Positions 4,220-31,918 of a stretch of 34,953 nucleotides of DNA are shown in pieces. The position numbers and the translations under genes were made by a program. Below the pieces are notes generated by a model. That model did not search any database, had not been told where the DNA came from, and worked only from the letters and a program-made list of their open reading frames with translations. The stretch comes from a virus, in IMG/VR virus record IMGVR_UViG_3300028837_001745, positions 1-34,953 of that record; one strand, given 5' to 3'. Each line of letters opens with the position of its first letter. Within the stretch, counting starts at the first letter, position 1.

Positions 4220-4441
4220 ATGAAAATAACTGACGAAAAATTAGAAAAAATCCTTAAATGGATGCTTAATCGAATGTGGCATCTTGAATTAAAATGTTTT
4301 GCCAATAAACAGAATATTAGCCCGGATACCTACGAAGTAATGCGTGAAAAGTGCAAAAAGTTGCAAGAATATTATGAAGATATTGAGAGGTCTTTTTTCG
4401 GAGAAGAAGGGAAAGAAGAAAATGAAAGATCTAACAACTAA
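4220..4441 (+). CDS. Small helical hypothetical protein (73 aa)
   Basis: ATG 4220 follows GGAAAAAG. The product is helical and charged with a Glu-rich tail (GEEGKEENERSNN). The tail region overlaps the start of the next gene by about 20 nt, which carries that gene's ribosome binding site. Function unknown. Confidence 0.55.
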   Translation: MKITDEKLEKILKWMLNRMWHLELKCFANKQNISPDTYEVMREKCKKLQEYYEDIERSFFGEEGKEENERSNN

Positions 4442-4688
4442 ACAAGCGGCAATCATTCTTGAAATTTCAGCAAGCATGGTAGGCCGGCTTTATCGTCAGG
4501 GAAAGCTTAATGGTTATAAAATTAATCCAAGCTGTTTGATGGTTAAGCAAGATGCTAAATTTAGGAAAATGGAGCGATATTATGGTATTTTGAAAGAGAA
4601 AATACGAAAATCAAAAGAGGTAAAGAATCATGAATCTTATAGAGGAAGAAAAAGAAAATTGCGCCTGGAAGGTTTTAGAGTTTTATGA
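4422..4688 (+). CDS. Excisionase-type helix-turn-helix DNA-binding protein (HTH_17)
   Basis: The start ATG 4422 follows GGGAAAGAAGAA. Residues 1-35 match the MerR/excisionase-like HTH_17 pattern: MKDLTTKQAAIILEIS, then SMVGRLYRQGKLNGYKI, the helix-turn-helix with the usual Gly-Lys wing. A second segment (AKFRKMERYYGIL) resembles the C-terminus of the ORF at 9217-9405, making them paralogues. Such proteins act as excisionases or small transcription regulators; which one is not decidable here. 88 residues; the 3' end overlaps the next gene. Confidence 0.7.
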   Translation: MKDLTTKQAAIILEISASMVGRLYRQGKLNGYKINPSCLMVKQDAKFRKMERYYGILKEKIRKSKEVKNHESYRGRKRKLRLEGFRVL

Positions 4689-4867: not shown

Positions 4868-5185
4868 ATGAATAAAACAGAAATAAATGAAAAATTAATA
4901 GGTGTAGTCAAATTAGGATTACCTGATGAAAACATATTATCTATATTAGAAAAAGGTGCGGATATTCATTATAGAACTTTTATCGGATGGACGCCTTTGA
5001 TGTTTGCTATTTATAACGGGCATTTGGAAACTGTACAGTTTTTATTAGATAAAGGAGCAAATGTACATGATGTATATGATGACATATCACTATTGCGATT
5101 TGCTGAAATTGCATTAGATCGTGCTGAACAAATCAGAGATATAATAAGCAAAAAAATTACTATAAGAAATAAAAATCATGACTAA
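4868..5185 (+). CDS. Ankyrin-repeat protein (105 aa)
   Basis: Contains recognisable ankyrin units: a diverged first unit ending ILEKGADIHYR, then a canonical one (GWTPLMFAIYNGHLETVQFLL, with residues Gly-Trp-Thr-Pro-Leu and the final DKGANVHD), and a third degraded unit. Ankyrin repeats bind proteins. In phages they are best known from Wolbachia phage WO and other phages of host-associated bacteria, but they also occur elsewhere. Two to three units without another domain is small for an ankyrin protein. It shares the AAAGAGGTAAAAAATC leader and overlaps the next gene by 8 nt. Confidence 0.75.
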   Translation: MNKTEINEKLIGVVKLGLPDENILSILEKGADIHYRTFIGWTPLMFAIYNGHLETVQFLLDKGANVHDVYDDISLLRFAEIALDRAEQIRDIISKKITIRNKNHD

Positions 5186-8029: not shown

Positions 8030-8103
<74 letters not shown>

Positions 8104-8105
8104 TC

Positions 8106-8179
8106 TGCGTAGTATAGCTTAGTGGTAAAGTCCGGGCTATTTACCTGGAGATCAGAGGTTCGATTCCTCTTACTACGCA
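8106..8179 (+). tRNA. tRNA-like gene, degenerate; apparent anticodon ATT
   Basis: Has a clear T arm (AGAGG-TTCGATT-CCTCT), a D arm (GCTT-AGTGGTA-AAGT), an anticodon stem CCGGG/CCTGG with one G-T pair and a loop CTATTTA, and a long acceptor helix (TGCGTAGTA with TACTACGCA, 9 bp). Problems: base 26 is missing, the acceptor is too long for the T-arm register, and the anticodon would be ATT, which is not normal for Asn. It may be decaying or a tRNA mimic. Closely packed between two better tRNAs. Confidence 0.5.
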
Positions 8180-8184
8180 TCAAT

Positions 8185-8259
8185 TGGGATGTGGTCTAGT
8201 GGTAAGACACCGGATTTTGATTCCGAAAATCGTAGGTTCGAATCCTACCGTCCCAGCCA
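8185..8259 (+). tRNA. tRNA-Gln(TTG)
   Basis: Acceptor TGGGATG with CGTCCCA, D arm GTC-TAGTGGTAA-GAC, anticodon loop TTTTGAT (anticodon TTG), T arm GTAGG-TTCGAAT-CCTAC, discriminator G and an encoded CCA. The anticodon stem has one C-A mismatch at the outer pair. CAA is the expected favoured Gln codon in an AT-rich genome. Confidence 0.88.
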
Positions 8260-13432: not shown

Positions 13433-13496
13433 TGTGGATAAGTCTGTGGATAACCTGTGGATAAGTCTTGCATTTCCTAAAATTATCTTGTAAGCT
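13433..13496 (+). promoter_or_regulatory. DnaA-box late promoter module 1 (three boxes)
   Basis: Perfect DnaA-box 9-mers TGTGGATAA at 13433-13441, 13445-13453 and 13456-13464, then a 3-nt gap, TTGCAT at 13468-13473, 17 bp, and a weak -10 TAAGCT at 13491-13496. The same geometry occurs at 19567, 28777 and 31833. On the other strand a TTGATT (13427 to 13422), 5 nt from the first box, could serve the minus gene at 13366. A small palindrome AAGATA-GCT-TATCTT lies at 13394-13408 over that promoter. Confidence 0.8.
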
Positions 13497-16594: not shown

Positions 16595-17218
16595 ATGTCC
16601 TATGCATATCCATATATTATTATTCTAGAACCAGTGAATTTGGCGGTATCGCTTGATACCGTCAAAGACCATTTAAAGATAGATGGCACAGAAAATGATG
16701 CAGAATTAACATTATTAATTAAGGCTGCGACAAGAATAGCTGAAAATTATACACGACGTACATTTATTAACACTGGATTTCGCACATATCGATGTTGCTT
16801 TCTTGATTGCTTTGAATTAAAAAGATCAAAATTTCAAGCATTAGAGAAATATGAATATTTAAAAGATGGTACTTTTACTATAGTTGATAGCTCTCTTTAC
16901 TACATTACTAGCGACACTGCTTATTCTAAAATACTTCTTAAGGATGGAAGTAGCTATCCGTCTGATATTGACATGAACGAACAAGCTATCATCATAGAAT
17001 TTGTAGCTGGATATGGGGTTGACGAAGAAGATATACCTTATGATTTACGTCTGGCATTATTAAATCATATTACTGCTTTGTTTGAAAATCGAGGCGATTG
17101 TGATTGTGTATCTGCCGTAACAACTGTGCCAAGCACTCAGAATTTACCAGCTACATCTAGGATTGTATATGATCAATATAGAATATTAGACATAGGTAAT
17201 AATTGTGGCTGTCTGTGA
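16595..17218 (+). CDS. Head-tail connector (gp6-like)
   Basis: 207 residues with the gp6-like connector signature near the N-terminus: VSLDTVKDHLKIDGTENDAE, then LLIKAATRIAENYTRRTF. The C-terminal PYDLRLALLNHITALFENRG is also typical. Forms part of the ring between portal and tail. Overlaps the adaptor gene by 14 nt. Confidence 0.85.
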   Translation: MSYAYPYIIILEPVNLAVSLDTVKDHLKIDGTENDAELTLLIKAATRIAENYTRRTFINTGFRTYRCCFLDCFELKRSKFQALEKYEYLKDGTFTIVDSSLYYITSDTAYSKILLKDGSSYPSDIDMNEQAIIIEFVAGYGVDEEDIPYDLRLALLNHITALFENRGDCDCVSAVTTVPSTQNLPATSRIVYDQYRILDIGNNCGCL

Positions 17219-17663
17219 CAAAATTAGACGAAAAAGTACTAGAGTTTGTATTGGTTCTTTAAATAGACGTGTGAAAATTTTTACCCGGTCATTGACGCCG
17301 CCAAGTGGTAGTGATGTTGATTTTTTAGAAGATTTTGTTGAAAACCGTGAAGTGTGGGGAATGATTGACACAGTAACTGGAGTCGCTGAATTTGATGAAA
17401 CAAATGTAGAAATGGTAGTTATTACTCATGATGTTTATATTCGCTACATTCCAAGCATTACCTTTGAAAAATGGCTAACCATTGAAATTGGCAGAAAACA
17501 AGAGAATGTTTTTCCTATGATTTGGCCATTTAAATTCGGATCAACACCTATAGATAAGCGGTTGCGTATAATCAGGGTACAAAATTATCAGGAAAATAAT
17601 AAATTTTATCGATTACGCTGTACTGTCCGTGGAATTGATACATTACCAGTTAACGAGGTTTGA
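17205..17663 (+). CDS. Head-tail adaptor (stopper) with an unusual inserted motif
   Basis: 152 residues starting at GTG inside the previous gene. GSLNRRVKIFTRSLTPPSG is the usual adaptor N-terminus, and the ending RLRIIRVQNYQENNKFYRLR is the usual C-terminus. Between them sits ENVFPMIWPFKFG, a motif otherwise seen in the gp48 gene at 28343. At DNA level the two copies share about 32 of 38 bases, with most changes silent. So the adaptor seems to contain an insert from, or shared with, the tail gene. Confidence 0.75.
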   Translation: MAVCDKIRRKSTRVCIGSLNRRVKIFTRSLTPPSGSDVDFLEDFVENREVWGMIDTVTGVAEFDETNVEMVVITHDVYIRYIPSITFEKWLTIEIGRKQENVFPMIWPFKFGSTPIDKRLRIIRVQNYQENNKFYRLRCTVRGIDTLPVNEV

Positions 17664-18151
17664 TGATGAAACTTACGCTTGATCCAAAAAGCAGGAGAGG
17701 ATTGATAGCAATTAAAGAGATGAACAAGAGAACTTTGCAGGGTATTCGTTCGGCTTTTTTTGATATAGGAAAGGATTTAACGAAAGATACACAGACATCA
17801 ATTATGGATAAGAATAAACATGGTCATTTGTATCGGGTGAAAGTTCGAGGAATAAGTAGATGGCATAGGGCATCTGCGCCAGGTGAAGCGCCGGCGAATT
17901 TAACAGGTAAATTGCGTAAATCAACAGGCTTTGAAGTAAGGGGTAGTGATCAAATGGAATTTGGTTATCGTGGCGGAAAGAAAGGTGTTGATTATGGCAT
18001 ATATTTAGAATTGGGAACTAAAAAGGGGGCTAAAGCTGGGAGAGAATGGCGAATGGCCCCTAGACCGGCATTAGAAATGGCTGTAATGAAAAATCAAGGA
18101 AATATGCAGTCAAAATTTGAAAATTTAATCAATAAGAGTTTAAGTAAATGA
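17663..18151 (+). CDS. HK97 gp10-like tail completion protein
   Basis: 162 residues. The ATG overlaps the previous stop (TGATG), and an ATG immediately after is an alternative. The core RASAPGEAPANLTGKLRKS and the later YGIYLELGTKKGAK match gp10-type neck/tail proteins. It lies in the expected place between adaptor and terminator. The end overlaps the next gene by 4 nt. Confidence 0.82.
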   Translation: MMKLTLDPKSRRGLIAIKEMNKRTLQGIRSAFFDIGKDLTKDTQTSIMDKNKHGHLYRVKVRGISRWHRASAPGEAPANLTGKLRKSTGFEVRGSDQMEFGYRGGKKGVDYGIYLELGTKKGAKAGREWRMAPRPALEMAVMKNQGNMQSKFENLINKSLSK

Positions 18152-19320
18152 AAGCACAGCATATTATAAATCAACTACAGGCACATTTGCCGCTTTATAC
18201 AAATCTGTTTAGTGATGAAATTGTTATAAGTTCATTAACTAAAAGCGGAACAACTGTGACGGCAGTAACTGCTATTCCACATGGATTAGCTACCGGAGAT
18301 TATGGCGTAATAGTTGATGCTTTAAGTCCTGTTGGCGTTATTAATCTAACTTATATCGATAATGGATATGATGAGGTTAAACATGGAATTGAAACAAATT
18401 CAGAATTGCGAGGTAAAACTACAACACAATTAGGGAAGCTGGTTGCATTTGCGGAAACTAATTTAGCTCATGATTTAACTGAAGATTGGCAAAACAAGAT
18501 AAATATAGTTGGCGCAGATCAATCTGAATATAACGGAGAACATTATCTGTTAACAGTTCCTAATCGTAAAAATTTTACTTATTTATTAGAAACCGAACCA
18601 TCTGCGACACCTGCAACTGGCACTATTAAATTAGTAGAAAATATTCCTTATAATTACAATGGATTTAAAGAATTTACTGTAGTCGATGCTACAACATTGA
18701 CTTATCAATTAACTAGAGATGTTGAAAGTCCAGCTTTAGGTAATCCAAAGCTTAGAATTAGGACGCGTATAAGCGGAGGCGTTGATATTGAACGTTGTAA
18801 TGATGCTTATACAGCTCACCCTAATAATAAATTATGGGGCTTTGTTGTTCTAGGTGACGCTATTGCGAATAAAGACCGCAATATTTATAACGATGCAATA
18901 GCTGCTTCTGGTCGAGGTGAGATTTTTAGGCAAATTAGAATATCACCTTTTAGTTTCTATGTTTTTAAATCATCTATAAATGAAAGAGCTGCCCGTGATG
19001 CTCGAGATGTCGCCGAAGGCCTTAATAAACAGATTTGCAAAAGTTTATTAAGAGTAAGATTTCCAAATATTTTTGAAGAAGAGCCATATAGTACAGTAAT
19101 TTATTCTGGAGATGGCTTTTTTAACTATGATGGAGCGGTTTATATCCATCGTTATGATTATCAGCAGGTTGCACATATAACCTATGGTGATACGGCGATT
19201 ATCGACCAAACTGTAGCATTTAGAGATCTATATCTTAATTATCAAACACCATTTGATCTATCTAATGATGATGTTTATTCGTCAGCGCATGTGGATTTAG
19301 ATGATGAACCATTGACTTGA
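18148..19320 (+). CDS. Tail terminator-like protein with an inserted beta domain
   Basis: 390 residues, much longer than usual tail terminators (about 150-200). The N-terminus (AQHIINQLQAHLPLYTNLF) and C-terminus fit a terminator of Mu gp37 type. From about residue 27 to 170 it carries a beta module: SSLTKSGTTVTAVTAIPHGL, then DQSEYNGEHYLLTVP and FTYLLETEPSATPATGT. The related pattern occurs in baseplate J (VATLTRAGSTVTVTMPADTP) and its secreted copy. The insert may face outward from the particle. Confidence 0.6.
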   Translation: MKAQHIINQLQAHLPLYTNLFSDEIVISSLTKSGTTVTAVTAIPHGLATGDYGVIVDALSPVGVINLTYIDNGYDEVKHGIETNSELRGKTTTQLGKLVAFAETNLAHDLTEDWQNKINIVGADQSEYNGEHYLLTVPNRKNFTYLLETEPSATPATGTIKLVENIPYNYNGFKEFTVVDATTLTYQLTRDVESPALGNPKLRIRTRISGGVDIERCNDAYTAHPNNKLWGFVVLGDAIANKDRNIYNDAIAASGRGEIFRQIRISPFSFYVFKSSINERAARDARDVAEGLNKQICKSLLRVRFPNIFEEEPYSTVIYSGDGFFNYDGAVYIHRYDYQQVAHITYGDTAIIDQTVAFRDLYLNYQTPFDLSNDDVYSSAHVDLDDEPLT

Positions 19321-19566: not shown

Positions 19567-19630
19567 TGTGGATAAATCTGTGGATAACCTGTGGATAAGT
19601 CTTGATTTTAATTTAAATATCTTATATCAT
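19567..19630 (+). promoter_or_regulatory. DnaA-box late promoter module 2 (three boxes)
   Basis: Boxes TGTGGATAA at 19567-19575, 19579-19587 and 19590-19598, a 3-nt gap, TTGATT at 19602-19607, 17 bp, and TATCAT at 19625-19630. The downstream sequence (CTTATATCATTGATCTATTA) is nearly identical to module 3. Drives the sheath-to-gp48 unit. Confidence 0.85.
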
Positions 19631-26997: not shown

Positions 26998-28335
26998 ATG
27001 CCAATTACAGTATCAACAACTAGAAAAGAAATCGCAGATAGAATAAGGACAGATGTACAAAATGCATTACCACAGTCAAATCCTTTCTTAAAAGAGTCCT
27101 GGATAGATGAATTAATTAGTGGGCTAGCTGGTCGTGATTTTGACTTATATAAATTTCTTCAATTATCATTTAGACAATTATTTCCTGATACTGCAATTGG
27201 AGTATTTTTAGATAGGTGGGGTAATTTTAAAGGAATAAATAGAAATCCAGCAACAGCAGCCGCAGGTTTAATTACTGCTACAGGTATAGCCGGGTCACTT
27301 GTTCCTATAGCATCTCTCCTGTCAAATCAAGCTGATGTTGTTTACGAAACGCAGGAAAATAAAACGATCTCAAGTCAAACTACAGATGTTGCAACTTTGA
27401 CTAGAGCCGGTTCAACAGTAACAGTTACAATGCCAGCAGATACTCCGCACCATTATGTTGTAGGACTATCACAGACTATTAGCAATGCTGTAAATCCTGA
27501 ATATAATGTAACAGCTCCGGTAACTTCTATTATTTCTGAATTAATTTATACTTATGAAATCAGTACAACACCACCTACGCCTGATGGCGGTGCAAATATT
27601 AAAAGTACGGCTACTTTTGCTAGTATTAACGTAAGATCTCAAGTTTTTGGCGAAGATACAAATGCTGCAAATGGCGACATTTTAACTTTTGCAAGTGCTA
27701 TTTCTGGCGTAAATGCAACTGCTACTGTGCAATTTCCTGAAATATCTGGAGGGACTGATATAGAAAGCGATGACGATTTCTCAAAACGAATACAAGAAGC
27801 ATATCAAAATCCTAATGCTAATTTTAATATTGCTACTATTATAAGTGTAGCTAAAACTGTGCCAGGCGTAACAAGGGTATGGGTGCAACCAATTACGCCA
27901 GGAGTGGGCGATACTACTGTATATTTTGTTAGAGATGATGATGGTGCGGGTTTTGGTATAGACATCATTCCTGATGGTCAAGAAGTAGCTGATGTTAAAG
28001 CAATTCTTGATGAACTTGCTCCGCCTAATATGGATCTTACTAATGATTTTATTGTAGCTGCTCCAACACCTCTTACTGTTAATTTTGTATTTACAGCGAT
28101 TGATCCAGACACAAGCACTATGCGGGATGCTCTTTTTGAGAATTTGAAGCAGTTTTTTAAGGAAGGTGTTGATGTTGGATTTAATATTAAAGAGGATGGT
28201 TATCGAGCAATAATTTTTCAAACAGTTGATCCTAATTCAGGGCAACCATTAAAATCATTTATCTTAAGTTCGCCGGTGGGTGATATTGCAATCGATACCG
28301 ATGAATTAGGCATTTTAGGAACAGTAACTTTTTAG
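26998..28335 (+). CDS. Baseplate J protein (Mu gp47-like) with an extra beta domain
   Basis: 445 residues. N-terminal IDELISGLAGRDFDLYKFLQ, then FPDTAIGVFLDRWGNFKGI. The J core resumes with DIESDDDFSKRIQEAYQNPN and VPGVTRVWVQPITPGVGDTT, as in gp47. Residues 92-245 hold the usual gp47 beta region enlarged by an extra module (VATLTRAGSTVTVTMPADTP to PPTPDGGAN). That same segment is duplicated in the secreted minus-strand gene at 30692-31285. Confidence 0.88.
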   Translation: MPITVSTTRKEIADRIRTDVQNALPQSNPFLKESWIDELISGLAGRDFDLYKFLQLSFRQLFPDTAIGVFLDRWGNFKGINRNPATAAAGLITATGIAGSLVPIASLLSNQADVVYETQENKTISSQTTDVATLTRAGSTVTVTMPADTPHHYVVGLSQTISNAVNPEYNVTAPVTSIISELIYTYEISTTPPTPDGGANIKSTATFASINVRSQVFGEDTNAANGDILTFASAISGVNATATVQFPEISGGTDIESDDDFSKRIQEAYQNPNANFNIATIISVAKTVPGVTRVWVQPITPGVGDTTVYFVRDDDGAGFGIDIIPDGQEVADVKAILDELAPPNMDLTNDFIVAAPTPLTVNFVFTAIDPDTSTMRDALFENLKQFFKEGVDVGFNIKEDGYRAIIFQTVDPNSGQPLKSFILSSPVGDIAIDTDELGILGTVTF

Positions 28336-28342
28336 GTGTGAT

Positions 28343-28771
28343 TTGTCCAGAACTCATGAATTTATCACTGATTGGGAAAAGTCTTTAGGCATTCCTGATG
28401 AATGTTTTGACCCCCATAATAAAACGCTTGATGAACGTCGTCAATATGCTATAGCCAAGTTGGCACGAATGAATTTAACTAATAGACAGGATTTTATTGA
28501 TTTAGCTGCTTATTTTGATATTAATGTGACTATAGATAGTGGCAGTCAATATAAAAATGTATTTCCTTTGAAATTTCCAATAATTTTTGGTTCAAAAGCT
28601 GCTAAATTTACCATGATAGTAACATTTATTGACATAAATAAGCCGGAAAATGTATTTCCAATGACTTGGCCGTTTAAATTTGGCACAGCACAAACAGCCT
28701 TTATTCAATGTCTTTTTCTAAAACTTAGACCTGCGAATGTACAAATTATTTGGCGATATGCTGATACTTAA
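28343..28771 (+). CDS. Mu gp48-like tail protein (DUF2313)
   Basis: 142 residues starting at TTG (no ATG fits; AGGTG lies just before). GIPDECFDPHNKTLDERRQY and LARMNLTNRQDFIDLAAYFD are typical of DUF2313, which closes the baseplate after J. It contains two copies of the NVFPxxxPxxFG motif (YKNVFPLKFPIIFGS and ENVFPMTWPFKFG). The second is shared with the adaptor gene at 17205. Confidence 0.82.
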   Translation: MSRTHEFITDWEKSLGIPDECFDPHNKTLDERRQYAIAKLARMNLTNRQDFIDLAAYFDINVTIDSGSQYKNVFPLKFPIIFGSKAAKFTMIVTFIDINKPENVFPMTWPFKFGTAQTAFIQCLFLKLRPANVQIIWRYADT

Positions 28772-28776
28772 CTGCC

Positions 28777-28828
28777 TGTGGATAACCTGTGGATAACTCT
28801 TGATTTTTACCAGAATTTCTTATATCAT
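28777..28828 (+). promoter_or_regulatory. DnaA-box late promoter module 3 (two boxes)
   Basis: Boxes TGTGGATAA at 28777-28785 and 28788-28796, a 3-nt gap, TTGATT at 28800-28805, 17 bp, and TATCAT at 28823-28828. Starts just after the gp48 stop. Drives the fibre gene at 28860. Confidence 0.85.
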
Positions 28829-28859: not shown

Positions 28860-30074
28860 ATGAGAGATATCCCAAATAAAAGTAATGATGAGTTTTATAT
28901 TCCTGCCGAATTTAATTCTTTTAAAAATGCATCTCAAAATACTATTATCAGCAGCGACCAAACGTTAAGCGAAGCAGATGCATTTCAATTAGCTAAAGCA
29001 TTAAGTAATTATGCTGGAATTGGTAATTTTTATGTCCAAACAGGTTCGCCTAATACTTATACTTTATCGGCAATTTCGCCATTTAAAGCTCCAAGCAAGA
29101 TATTTGATGGATTAACGGTTAGAACGAGAATTGTTGATACTAACACCGGCGCATCTACATTAGATTGGAACGGAACTGGCGCAAAAGCAATCAAAAAAAA
29201 TCGTGGGGTAGATGATTTAGTAGCAGGTGACTTGGTAACTGATGATTATCCTATATTTGTATATGAATTAAGCAGCAATATTTGGAATTTAATTACAGAG
29301 CCCATTGAGAGCAGTTATCCTTTAGGTTATTTGAGTGGATTCAAAATTGAACAAGATAGCGGCGATACAGCTCATGATATTAAAATTTATGAAGGAGCTG
29401 CCAGAGGTCAAAAGGATTTAGTTGATCTAAAAATACCTGTTGGATCTACAATTATTAAACAAATTGATGTTGATTGGGTAGAAGGAACGAATCAAGGCGG
29501 ATTTCCAAGCGGATTAACGTTAACCGCTGACACATGGTATCATGTTTTTGTTATTACAAAGCCTAATGGTTTTACAGATGCAGGTGTTGATTCTGCGACT
29601 GATGCAACAAATTTATTAGCTGATGCTACAGATTATATAGATTATAAAAGGACTGGTTCTATTTTGGTCGATGGTAGCAGTAATATTATAGATTTTGTCC
29701 AAACACTTACTATAGGACAACGTTTGACTTACTGGAAAGTAGATCAACAAATTAGCAATTCTAACCCAGGAATATCAGCGGTAACTAGAGCAATTAGTAC
29801 GCCTTTAGGTATACAAGTTTTAGCTCATTTGGCTGTTTATCTTGATTCAGACGATTCTAGTGCAAATATAAATGGTCGTATATATGCGGTAGATGAACCG
29901 GTAGGTACTGACTTTAATCATAATATTCAGGCTGGTTATATAGCTACAACAGATGTGGCAGGTTCTTCAGATATAATGGTTAAAACAGATCTTTTAAGTC
30001 AAATAAAATATATAATAACCGCCACCAGTGCGGGCACGAGAATGCAAATAGAAACAAGAGGCTGGATTGAATAG
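28860..30074 (+). CDS. Tail fibre-type protein
   Basis: 404 residues, beta-rich with a fibre-like pattern: FQLAKALSNYAGIGNFYVQT, the TYTLSAISPFKAPSKIFDGL segment, then TRIVDTNTGASTLDWNGTGA, typical of fibre shaft proteins. It stands alone in its own unit with the DnaA-box promoter, after the baseplate genes. Host-receptor binding is likely. It is the last plus-strand gene before the two minus-strand morons. Confidence 0.75.
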   Translation: MRDIPNKSNDEFYIPAEFNSFKNASQNTIISSDQTLSEADAFQLAKALSNYAGIGNFYVQTGSPNTYTLSAISPFKAPSKIFDGLTVRTRIVDTNTGASTLDWNGTGAKAIKKNRGVDDLVAGDLVTDDYPIFVYELSSNIWNLITEPIESSYPLGYLSGFKIEQDSGDTAHDIKIYEGAARGQKDLVDLKIPVGSTIIKQIDVDWVEGTNQGGFPSGLTLTADTWYHVFVITKPNGFTDAGVDSATDATNLLADATDYIDYKRTGSILVDGSSNIIDFVQTLTIGQRLTYWKVDQQISNSNPGISAVTRAISTPLGIQVLAHLAVYLDSDDSSANINGRIYAVDEPVGTDFNHNIQAGYIATTDVAGSSDIMVKTDLLSQIKYIITATSAGTRMQIETRGWIE

Positions 30075-30091
30075 TAAATAAAAACTATTTT
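30069..30091. terminator. Weak hairpin between convergent genes
   Basis: AATAGT/ACTATT around an 8-nt A-rich loop at 30070-30089, overlapping the fibre stop and reaching the end of the minus-strand gene. The sequence is near symmetric, so it could end transcripts from both sides, though the stem is short. Confidence 0.3.
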
Positions 30092-30663
30092 ATCCGATAT
30101 TTCTCCTGATCATGAATATTAATTTCTATTGCAGAATTATTCTCACCATCTCCTTTTAGTTGTGATGGATGCGCTATTGAAAGGCCTGCATTAACAATAG
30201 TTCCGAATATATAAAAATCAGAAGTTGGCGAATAATTGCGATAACAATTAAGTATTGATTTTTTGGGGTCGACATCAGGTTGTCCTTCTGTATTCATAAA
30301 TGGAAGTTCTATTCTTTTATTAAAATTATACACTCCCTTATAATGTTTTTCTAAGAAAAGCTTCCTATCATAAACCCATATTGCTGCGATATTATATGAT
30401 GTATTTTTTTTTGCCCACCAATATATTAAACCAATATTCCATGTAACTGTAGTTCCATCATCAGCTAAACCATGAGAATCATCAAAGAAACAAATTGTAG
30501 CTTTTGGCTTTAATTTATAAGGTGTACCATCAAAATCTACTATAGGTACACCGTGCTTATTTCTTGCCAATGTATCTTTAGTTGATGCTATATATGGATT
30601 AGCATATATGCTTATACCAATGATAAATGTAGATATAAATAAAATTATCTGTAGTTTTTTCAC
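30085..30663 (-). CDS. Secreted protein of unknown function (moron)
   Basis: 192 residues; the start is GTG at 30663 with AAAGAGGAGAC upstream. Residues 1-21 form a signal peptide (MKKLQIILFISTFIIGISIY, then Ala), with cleavage likely after IYA. The mature part is soluble, has one Cys, aromatic segments (TVTWNIGLIYWWAKK) and no known motif. Its signal peptide resembles that of its operon partner (KLQ, IILFI, FII). The 28-nt gap suggests cotranscription with 30692-31285. It is oriented against the late genes, as expected of a lysogenic-conversion gene. Confidence 0.65.
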   Translation of the reverse strand: MKKLQIILFISTFIIGISIYANPYIASTKDTLARNKHGVPIVDFDGTPYKLKPKATICFFDDSHGLADDGTTVTWNIGLIYWWAKKNTSYNIAAIWVYDRKLFLEKHYKGVYNFNKRIELPFMNTEGQPDVDPKKSILNCYRNYSPTSDFYIFGTIVNAGLSIAHPSQLKGDGENNSAIEINIHDQEKYRIK

Positions 30664-30691
30664 AAAAGTCTCCTCTTTAAAGATTTAATCA

Positions 30692-31285
30692 TTATTGTAC
30701 AGTAGCAGTTGCCTCTACTCCTGCAATTGCTGATTCAAAAACCAATATTTCGCCAGTAACTAAATTTGGTACTTTATGAATATAATAAGAATTGTTGGAT
30801 GTATAAGTTTTTGTAGTTTTTGGTTTAACTGTAAGACTTGCAAATACAGCTGTACTTTTAATATTTGCACCACCATCAGGTGTCGGTGGCGTAGTATTAA
30901 TTTTATAAGTATAACTTAATTTTGATATAACAGAAGTCACCGGAGCAGTTACATTATATTCAGGATTTGTGGCATTACTAATGGTCTGTGATAGTCCTAC
31001 AACATAATGATGCGGAGTATCAGCTGGCATTGTAACTGTTACTGTTGATCCGGATCTTGTTAAAGTTGCAACATCTGTTATATGTTTTTCTATTGTTTTA
31101 TTTTCTAGCGTCTCATATACGGAGCCATCTTTACTTGATAAAAGATATGCTTTTGGTATAATTGCTCCGCTTATACCTGTTGTAGTCATAAACCTTACTC
31201 TCGTTGATTTTTCAATTGCGAAGACGTTTGCATTGATTATAAACATAAAAATGAATAGAATTATTTGTAATTGTAATTTTCTCAT
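30692..31285 (-). CDS. Secreted copy of the baseplate J beta domain (moron)
   Basis: 197 residues. Residues 1-23 are a Sec signal peptide (KLQLQIILFIFMFIINAN, then VFA as the cleavage site). From residue 35 to the end at 197 it aligns with residues about 92-245 of this phage's baseplate J (TTTGISG with TATGIAG, down to ATATVQ). The central 80 residues (DVATLT to KSTAVFAS) are about 90 percent identical. It thus looks like a domain taken from the tail and targeted for export. An AAAGGAG site precedes the ATG. Confidence 0.8.
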   Translation of the reverse strand: MRKLQLQIILFIFMFIINANVFAIEKSTRVRFMTTTGISGAIIPKAYLLSSKDGSVYETLENKTIEKHITDVATLTRSGSTVTVTMPADTPHHYVVGLSQTISNATNPEYNVTAPVTSVISKLSYTYKINTTPPTPDGGANIKSTAVFASLTVKPKTTKTYTSNNSYYIHKVPNLVTGEILVFESAIAGVEATATVQ

Positions 31286-31336
31286 AAAATTCTCCTTTAA
31301 TTGATTGATTAATTTATTAATATTTACACGAAATTA

Positions 31337-31369
31337 CTATAACATACAAACCTTAAGGAAACCTTAAAT
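31337..31369 (-). promoter_or_regulatory. OmpR/PmrA-type direct-repeat promoter for the secreted genes
   Basis: Read on the minus strand: TTTAAG (31369-31364), 5 nt, CTTAAG (31358-31353), 10 nt, then TATAGT (31342-31337). There is no -35 hexamer; the two half-sites sit in its place. This matches the PmrA box YTTAAK-N5-YTTAAK and the usual 10-bp distance of such boxes from the -10. Start expected near 31330, about 45 nt before the ATG. Confidence 0.65.
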
Positions 31370-31484
31370 GAGTTGAATAAATATTAATATATTAATAAAT
31401 ACTTTCAATTTGCGAATTTTATTTAAATAAAGTATTACTGTGACCTGTGGATTACATTAACAGAATGGTTTTCGCAGTAAGCCG

Positions 31485-31620
31485 CTTAGTGTAGAATTGA
31501 ACTAGTTAAGTGTTGTTTTTTGGGTAATTAAGTGTAGCGTTTTTATTAAGTGTAGCAATAAGCCTATTTAAGTGTAGCGTTTTTGGTTATTAAGTGTAGA
31601 AAAAATATAATTAAGTGTAG
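31485..31620 (+). repeat. Phased iterons (TTAAGTGTAG), seven copies
   Basis: Perfect copies at 31528, 31546, 31568, 31590 and 31611; degenerate copies near 31485 and 31506. Spacing is 18-22 bp, mostly 21-22, i.e. two helical turns, so the copies face the same side of the DNA. A DnaA-box-like TGTGGATTA lies at about 31445 and two perfect boxes at 31833-31852. The layout is that of an iteron replication origin or of a large regulatory array. Confidence 0.8.
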
Positions 31621-31641
31621 AAAATTTAGTTGGACTGTGAA

Positions 31642-31702
31642 TACGCAAATTGCGCACTTAAACTACGCAGGCTACGCAAATTGCGCACTTGAACTACGCA
31701 AA
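31642..31702 (+). repeat. Two 31-bp direct repeats (TACGCAAATTGCGCACTT...)
   Basis: TACGCAAATTGCGCACTT begins at 31642 and again at 31673. Each is followed by AACTACGCA after one variable base. The copies share the centre GCAAATTGC, itself near-palindromic. They lie between the iterons and the hairpins at 31725 and 31772. Confidence 0.75.
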
Positions 31703-31724
31703 CCGTTCATAGATTATTCTTAGC

Positions 31725-31807
31725 GAGTAAAAAGGTACAATGCATGTACTTTTTTACTCTCTAAATTTTATGGTGTTTTAGGGGTTAAATTTTTGACCTA
31801 AAACACC
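31725..31807 (+). terminator. Two strong hairpins in the non-coding region
   Basis: The first, 31725-31759, is a 15-bp stem with one G-T pair and loop ATGCA. The second, 31772-31807, is an 11-bp perfect stem GGTGTTTTAGG / CCTAAAACACC with a 14-nt loop, followed by TTTAAATTT. Either could end transcription or be part of an origin structure. They separate the iterons from module 4. Confidence 0.55.
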
Positions 31808-31832
31808 TTTAAATTTATAAAAATATTTTGCC

Positions 31833-31884
31833 TGTGGATAACCTGTGGATAACTCTTGAGTTTAAGCAAAATAATCGATATACT
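31833..31884 (+). promoter_or_regulatory. DnaA-box late promoter module 4 (two boxes)
   Basis: Boxes TGTGGATAA at 31833-31841 and 31844-31852, a 3-nt gap, TTGAGT at 31856-31861, 17 bp, and TATACT at 31879-31884, the best -10 of the four modules. Drives 31919-34953 and is close to the iteron array. Confidence 0.85.
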
Positions 31885-31918
31885 ATAAGCATCTGTTCAA
31901 GCAAAATAGGACAAAATT

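What the first reader, a model, noticed from the sequence alone, without database searches (positions are those of the whole stretch)
30692..31285. Secreted protein made from the phage's own baseplate J domain
The minus-strand ORF is a Sec signal peptide plus a domain matching residues about 92-245 of the baseplate J protein (26998-28335), with about 72 of 80 identical residues in the core. It begins and ends at natural domain limits (TTTGISG to ATATVQ). A tail domain exported by the lysogen is unusual. It could occupy a receptor used by the same tail (superinfection exclusion), act as a decoy, or act outside the cell.
Basis: partly seen in the sequence, partly recalled or inferred. Interest (0 to 1): 0.9.

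Follow-up and report, generated by a model that had tools for sequence, protein, structure and literature searches.

The report
Exported copy of phage baseplate domain
An uncultured contractile-tail phage carries a separate gene that puts an export signal on a copy of one domain of its own baseplate protein J; no counterpart was found in any collection searched, and it may act on the tails of related phages, although its function is not shown.

Summary
ORF 30692-31285 (minus, 197 aa, good RBS) is a Sec-type signal peptide (res. 1-23, ...ANVFA|IE) fused to residues 91-245 of the window's baseplate J (110/166 identical, E=2e-70). The segment is the beta "wing/pin" region between J's N-terminal helices and its trifurcation region, including an extra ~75-residue module that splits the Pfam Baseplate_J match and is absent from Mu gp47. 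That module occurs in other virion proteins (PHROG families; window 18148-19320), so it is a promiscuous tail module. It is 88-90% identical between ORF and J; the surrounding barrel parts only 57%, with silent sites showing the same split (p about 0.015): a mosaic, suggesting recent exchange of the module. In solved baseplates the wing/pin faces the hub or tail tip, so receptor blocking is not supported. No secreted counterpart was found in viral contigs, phages, plasmids or genomes. Best guess: a moron whose envelope-located self-mimic interferes with related tails (superinfection exclusion); inferred only. Rivals: binding protein or adhesin, inert by-product, module reservoir, assembly chimera. 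The contig shows five 165-266 bp losses against relatives, probably assembly gaps, so the locus needs independent confirmation. Both structure predictions failed.

The parts
30692..31285 (-). Exported J-domain gene (197 aa plus stop)
31292..31298 (-). Shine-Dalgarno AAAGGAG, 6 nt before ATG
   Evidence: Sequence
31217..31285 (-). Signal peptide, residues 1-23 (cleavage predicted after ANVFA)
   Evidence: Hydropathy rank 2 of 44 ORFs; motif read by eye; SignalP not available
31085..31192 (-). N-terminal half of the J wing barrel (residues 32-67), 53% aa identity to J
30836..31084 (-). Inserted virion module with short edges (residues 68-150), 88-90% aa identity to J
30695..30835 (-). C-terminal part of the wing barrel (residues 151-197) with an 11-residue insertion relative to J
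26998..28335 (+). Baseplate J (BW2-type wedge protein, 445 aa)
   Evidence: PF04865 E=5.5e-41; Mu gp47 9ki1_H E=1.2e-18
27268..27732 (+). Source-type segment in J (residues 91-245)
27376..27624 (+). Module in J (residues 127-209) that splits the Pfam match and is absent from Mu gp47
18442..18630 (+). Part of a further module copy in structural protein 18148-19320 (residues 99-161)
   Evidence: phrog_9998 E=2.6e-7 at the same profile positions; direct comparison inconclusive
30085..30663 (-). Neighbouring gene with a signal peptide (192 aa, GTG start), no relative found; its signal-peptide DNA resembles that of the finding
31286..31440 (-). Presumed promoter region of the minus-strand pair; weak sigma-70-like match TTGAAA-16-TAATAT at 31408-31381
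   Evidence: not above chance

Best explanation
The gene is a moron-like accessory gene, one of two adjacent minus-strand genes with signal peptides set into the late tail region. Shown by sequence: a signal peptide is fused to the complete wing/pin-type beta region of the phage's own baseplate wedge protein J, including a promiscuous virion module that sits in J at the same place. Inferred: the product is exported by Sec to the periplasm or envelope. There it imitates part of the wedge and binds whatever the same part of J binds, either the hub or tail tip of an incoming related phage or an envelope ligand of the module, and so lowers superinfection by phages with the same baseplate. The module is kept matched to J by occasional recombination with the J gene.
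For: Fusion with exact domain limits. RBS, signal peptide and an open 197-codon frame with an in-frame 33-nt insertion. Fewer amino-acid changes than neutral. Mosaic: core close to both J proteins (78-97% nt), flanks 60-75%; ORF-specific silent changes 4/73 codons in core against 8/35 in flanks (p=0.013-0.018), as expected if the module is exchanged with J-type genes. Wing/pin regions of solved baseplates contact hub or tail tip (PMC10329688, PMC11915804, PMC10996793). Phage-encoded exported proteins that act on tail components are known: Ltp of TP-J34, whose target is the tape measure protein (PMC3952083 and the structure paper it cites).
Against: No functional data and no host. Lysogeny is not shown beyond a weak excisionase-like hit. 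No second genome carries the gene, so its conservation as a separate gene cannot be tested. Constraint on the ORF branch itself is weak. The mosaic test is small. The barrel part that would contact the hub has diverged most (57% identity). The promoter match is at chance level.
Confidence: 0.33

Rival explanations
1. Exported binding protein or adhesin: the virion module is a ligand-binding unit (sugar or surface protein) and the exported copy serves the bacterium outside the tail, for example in attachment or as a lysogenic-conversion factor.
For: The module recurs in fibres, neck and other structural proteins of many phages and is the best kept part of the ORF. Phage tail proteins serving as surface adhesins are known (PblB, PMC4508584).
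Against: No anchor, lipobox, sorting motif or second export signal; no evidence that the module binds anything.
Confidence: 0.24
2. Evolutionary by-product: a recombination put a J fragment behind a signal peptide; the gene is expressed little or not at all and has no selected role.
For: No relative with this architecture. The ORF branch shows only weak constraint. The phage family shows another internal copy of a baseplate-gene stretch inside an unrelated gene (17502-17544, about 93% to gp48 of L003).
Against: RBS, start, signal peptide, domain-exact ends and an intact frame after large divergence; P(no stop) under neutrality 0.07.
Confidence: 0.22
3. Module reservoir: the gene is mainly a donor or recipient for gene conversion that varies the J module, like a silent cassette.
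For: Mosaic identity confined to the module; J-J3 silent divergence also varies along the gene.
Against: A cassette needs no RBS, signal peptide or stop. The module is nearly invariant in amino acids, not variable. Inversion between the inverted copies would break J.
Confidence: 0.08
4. Assembly chimera: the minus-strand piece was joined wrongly, or the signal peptide and J parts come from different molecules.
For: The window lacks 165-266 bp at five places relative to L003, L004 and L007 with near-identical flanks, which looks like removed scaffold gaps. No independent contig covers 29320-31900.
Against: The ORF differs from J by 20% in DNA, so it is not a misplaced J read. Two joins would have to fall exactly in frame and at domain limits, next to a matching RBS.
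Confidence: 0.08
5. Virion or lysis role during the lytic cycle: the exported piece helps assembly or release, or sequesters its own tails.
For: It lies within the late tail region.
Against: It is on the opposite strand to the late operons and does not follow the shared late-promoter motif; assembly occurs in the cytoplasm.
Confidence: 0.05

Closest known systems
Baseplate J / BW2 wedge proteins (Mu gp47, E217 gp44, diffocin Tri2; Pfam PF04865)
   Same: Direct homologue of the beta wing/pin region, residues 91-245 of the window's J
   Different: No N-terminal helical bundle, trifurcation or dimerisation parts; carries a signal peptide; cannot build a wedge
Ltp-type superinfection exclusion lipoproteins (phage TP-J34)
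   Same: Phage-encoded exported protein proposed to act on incoming tails
   Different: Here no lipobox cysteine and derivation from a tail protein; Ltp has a Gram-positive host and a proven function
PblA/PblB phage tail proteins as bacterial surface adhesins
   Same: A tail component located outside the cell for a non-virion role
   Different: Those are the virion proteins themselves; here a dedicated gene with its own signal peptide carries only one domain
Promiscuous virion module of phrog_9998, phrog_5838 and phrog_529
   Same: Same module, also in J and in window 18148-19320
   Different: In those families it is part of structural proteins, not of an exported one

Membership tests
Baseplate_J (PF04865) wedge protein | Significant match to the Pfam model | tested here: not met
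   ORF: no PF04865 match at E<=1; homology only through the window's own J
Baseplate_J (PF04865) wedge protein | Complete chain with helical bundle, trifurcation and C-terminal domain | tested here: not met
   ORF covers only J 91-245
Sec-exported protein | N-terminal signal peptide with cleavage site | tested here: met
   Sequence motif and hydropathy; export itself not tested
Ltp-type or other superinfection-exclusion lipoprotein | Lipobox cysteine | tested here: not met
   No cysteine in the mature part
Superinfection exclusion protein | Blocks infection by related phages | not testable with these tools
   Needs phage and host
Known anti-phage defence proteins | Match to a PADLOC-DB model | tested here: not met
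   None at E<=1
Moron / lysogenic conversion gene | Accessory gene with its own promoter, against the late operon, in a temperate phage | tested here: inconclusive
   Opposite strand and intergenic upstream region; promoter match at chance level; temperate state only by a weak excisionase-like hit
Promiscuous virion module (phrog_9998 type) | Profile match | tested here: met
   ORF E=3.9e-6, J E=0.003; module alone 4.7e-6 and 9.4e-5, 18148-19320 2.6e-7

The most novel reading that the evidence does not exclude
A phage exports an exact self-mimic of its baseplate trigger domain to jam incoming tails that carry the same domain, and keeps the mimic's module matched to J by gene conversion: a self-recognition form of superinfection exclusion built from a virion part.
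Probability: 0.13. Interest if true: 0.85.

Novelty: new variant of a known kind. Interest (0 to 1): 0.52.

Why it matters
If the exported domain blocks tails, it would show a simple way to make superinfection exclusion: copy a baseplate part and add a signal peptide. It would also give a soluble probe for the contacts that hold a contractile tail in its loaded state. Even if not, it is a clear case of a virion module moving between J, another structural protein and an exported protein within one genome.

Tried and rejected
Structure: AlphaFold2 on J (2 sequences) and on the mature ORF (3 sequences) gave mean pLDDT 30 and 38, so no fold search was run. Search for secreted relatives: viral contigs, phages and plasmids, genome contigs and named records gave only the J gene of L003. 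Host: a genome scan with the capsid alignment found nothing; the nearest capsid is that of Azospirillum phage Cd, the nearest sheaths those of Bordetella phages at about 26%, so the host is unknown. Phase inversion between the two inverted J copies (longest exact match 26 bp): rejected, since inversion would truncate J and break gp48 and the tail genes. Decaying prophage: considered for the truncated genes, but the losses are sharp, 165-266 bp, with 98.5-99.6% identical flanks in L007, so removed assembly gaps are likelier. First estimate that the ORF core is held by strong selection on its own branch: withdrawn, because silent changes are also few there. Common origin of the two signal peptides: strong against dinucleotide shuffles (0/2000), but only p about 0.006-0.02 when codons are permuted, so only suggestive.

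Full report
What is there. ORF 30692-31285 on the minus strand encodes 197 aa with ATG start and AAAGGAG six bases upstream. Residues 1-23 form a Sec-type signal peptide by composition and motif; among 44 ORFs of 90 aa or more its start is the second most hydrophobic, and the mature part has neither cysteine nor another hydrophobic stretch. Residues 32-197 align with residues 91-245 of the window's baseplate J, 26998-28335 (110/166 identical, E=2e-70). The two copies are inverted relative to each other and about 3 kb apart.

What part of J it is. J matches Pfam Baseplate_J in two pieces, profile 4-69 and 57-240, with J residues from about 135 to 199 unmatched between them, and it matches Mu gp47 (9ki1_H) at J 14-135 and 208-390, with nothing between. 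So J has an insertion of roughly 75 residues in its beta region compared with Mu. The ORF contains the whole beta region with this insertion and stops just before the conserved GGxDIESDDDF segment. [quoted passage not shown] in E217 the pin domain of the same protein touches the tail tip and lets go on contraction (PMC10329688); in Mu the pin domain is close to the hub (PMC11915804). I equate the ORF segment with this wing/pin by order along the chain; no structure confirms it.

The module. The insertion alone matches phrog_9998, phrog_5838 (virion structural protein) and phrog_529 (tail fiber protein); the structural protein 18148-19320 matches the same profile positions, although a direct profile comparison of the two is inconclusive. 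Weak matches of the same kind lie in tail fibre and neck proteins of cyanophages and in hypothetical proteins of Rhizobium phages. It is thus a module that moves between virion proteins. In this window it is found in J, in 18148-19320 and in the exported ORF.

Mosaic history. Against J and the J of L003 (88% identical to the window's J), the ORF core 68-150 has 10 or 8 differences in 83 residues, but the flanks have 27 in 63 (p=4e-5 and 4e-6); J and L003-J show no such contrast. Silent changes special to the ORF are also rarer in the core (4 of 73 codons) than in the flanks (8 of 35; p=0.013-0.018). So the pattern is not only selection: the core looks more recently shared, by exchange between J-type genes and the exported gene. 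The numbers are small. Across the whole alignment amino-acid changes are fewer than neutral simulation gives (37 against 60.6), but part of this constraint belongs to J.

Neighbours and control. The next gene, 30085-30663, on the same strand, also begins with a signal peptide and has no relatives. The 5' parts of both genes resemble each other in DNA, weakly significant once codon content is controlled. Late operons on the plus strand are preceded by a shared motif with tandem TGTGGATAA sites; the minus-strand pair is not, and so is probably controlled otherwise. An excisionase-like HTH protein (4344-4688, E=8.7e-7) is the only hint of lysogeny.

Distribution. No other contig with the signal peptide-J architecture was found in viral contigs, phages, plasmids, genome contigs or the related records. 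The pattern-based scans reach only close relatives. Near relatives exist for other parts only: L003 (J region), L004 and L005 (head), L007 (head to tail, 98.5-99.6% identical over most of its length). None covers 29320-31900, so presence or absence in sister phages is unknown.

Quality of the contig. At about 14585, 16384, 21106, 24870 and 28335 the window lacks 165-266 bp that relatives have, with high identity up to the joins. This truncates capsid, tube, hub and gp48 genes and most probably reflects removed scaffold gaps. The ORF itself cannot be explained by a misplaced J read, because it is 20% different, but independent reads should confirm the locus.

Judgement. The architecture is established at the sequence level, provided the contig is right. 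Export is likely. Function is inference: I put interference with related tails first (0.33), then a binding or adhesin role (0.24) and an inert by-product (0.22). Structure prediction gave no usable model.

Noticed in passing
window 13433-13464, 19567-19598, 28777-28796, 31833-31852: Tandem TGTGGATAA sites (DnaA-box-like, 11-12 bp apart), followed by TCTTGA and in several cases a TATA-like box, 60-85 bp before four plus-strand late operons: looks like a shared late promoter with activator sites. The pattern also occurs in L007 (same phage group) and four other viral contigs of about 38 kb with no match to J.
   Followed up: partly
window 31506-31700: Five exact and one near copy of TTAAGTGTAG, and two 28-nt copies of TACGCAAATTGCGCACTTnAACTACGCA: iteron-like array in the region upstream of the exported gene.
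   Followed up: partly
window about 14585, 16384, 21106, 24870, 28335: Sharp 165-266 bp losses relative to L003, L004 and L007 that truncate several genes; probably removed assembly gaps. The split terminase (1691-2305/2404-2949) and portal (5591-6157/6072-6911) may have the same cause.
   Followed up: partly
window 17502-17544 and 28646-28691: A stretch encoding ENVFPMxWPFKFG is shared between a head-tail gene (17205-17663) and baseplate gene gp48 (43 bp at 93% to gp48 of L003); the head-tail homologue in L005 lacks it: another apparent internal copy of a baseplate-gene piece.
   Followed up: partly
window 30085-30663: Second minus-strand gene with a signal peptide, two cysteines in the mature part, no relative in any library searched.
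   Followed up: partly
window 8030-8259: Cluster of three tRNA genes (Met, Asn, Gln).
   Followed up: no
window 4868-5185: Small ankyrin-repeat protein (Ank_4 E=3.9e-14) in a phage contig.
   Followed up: no
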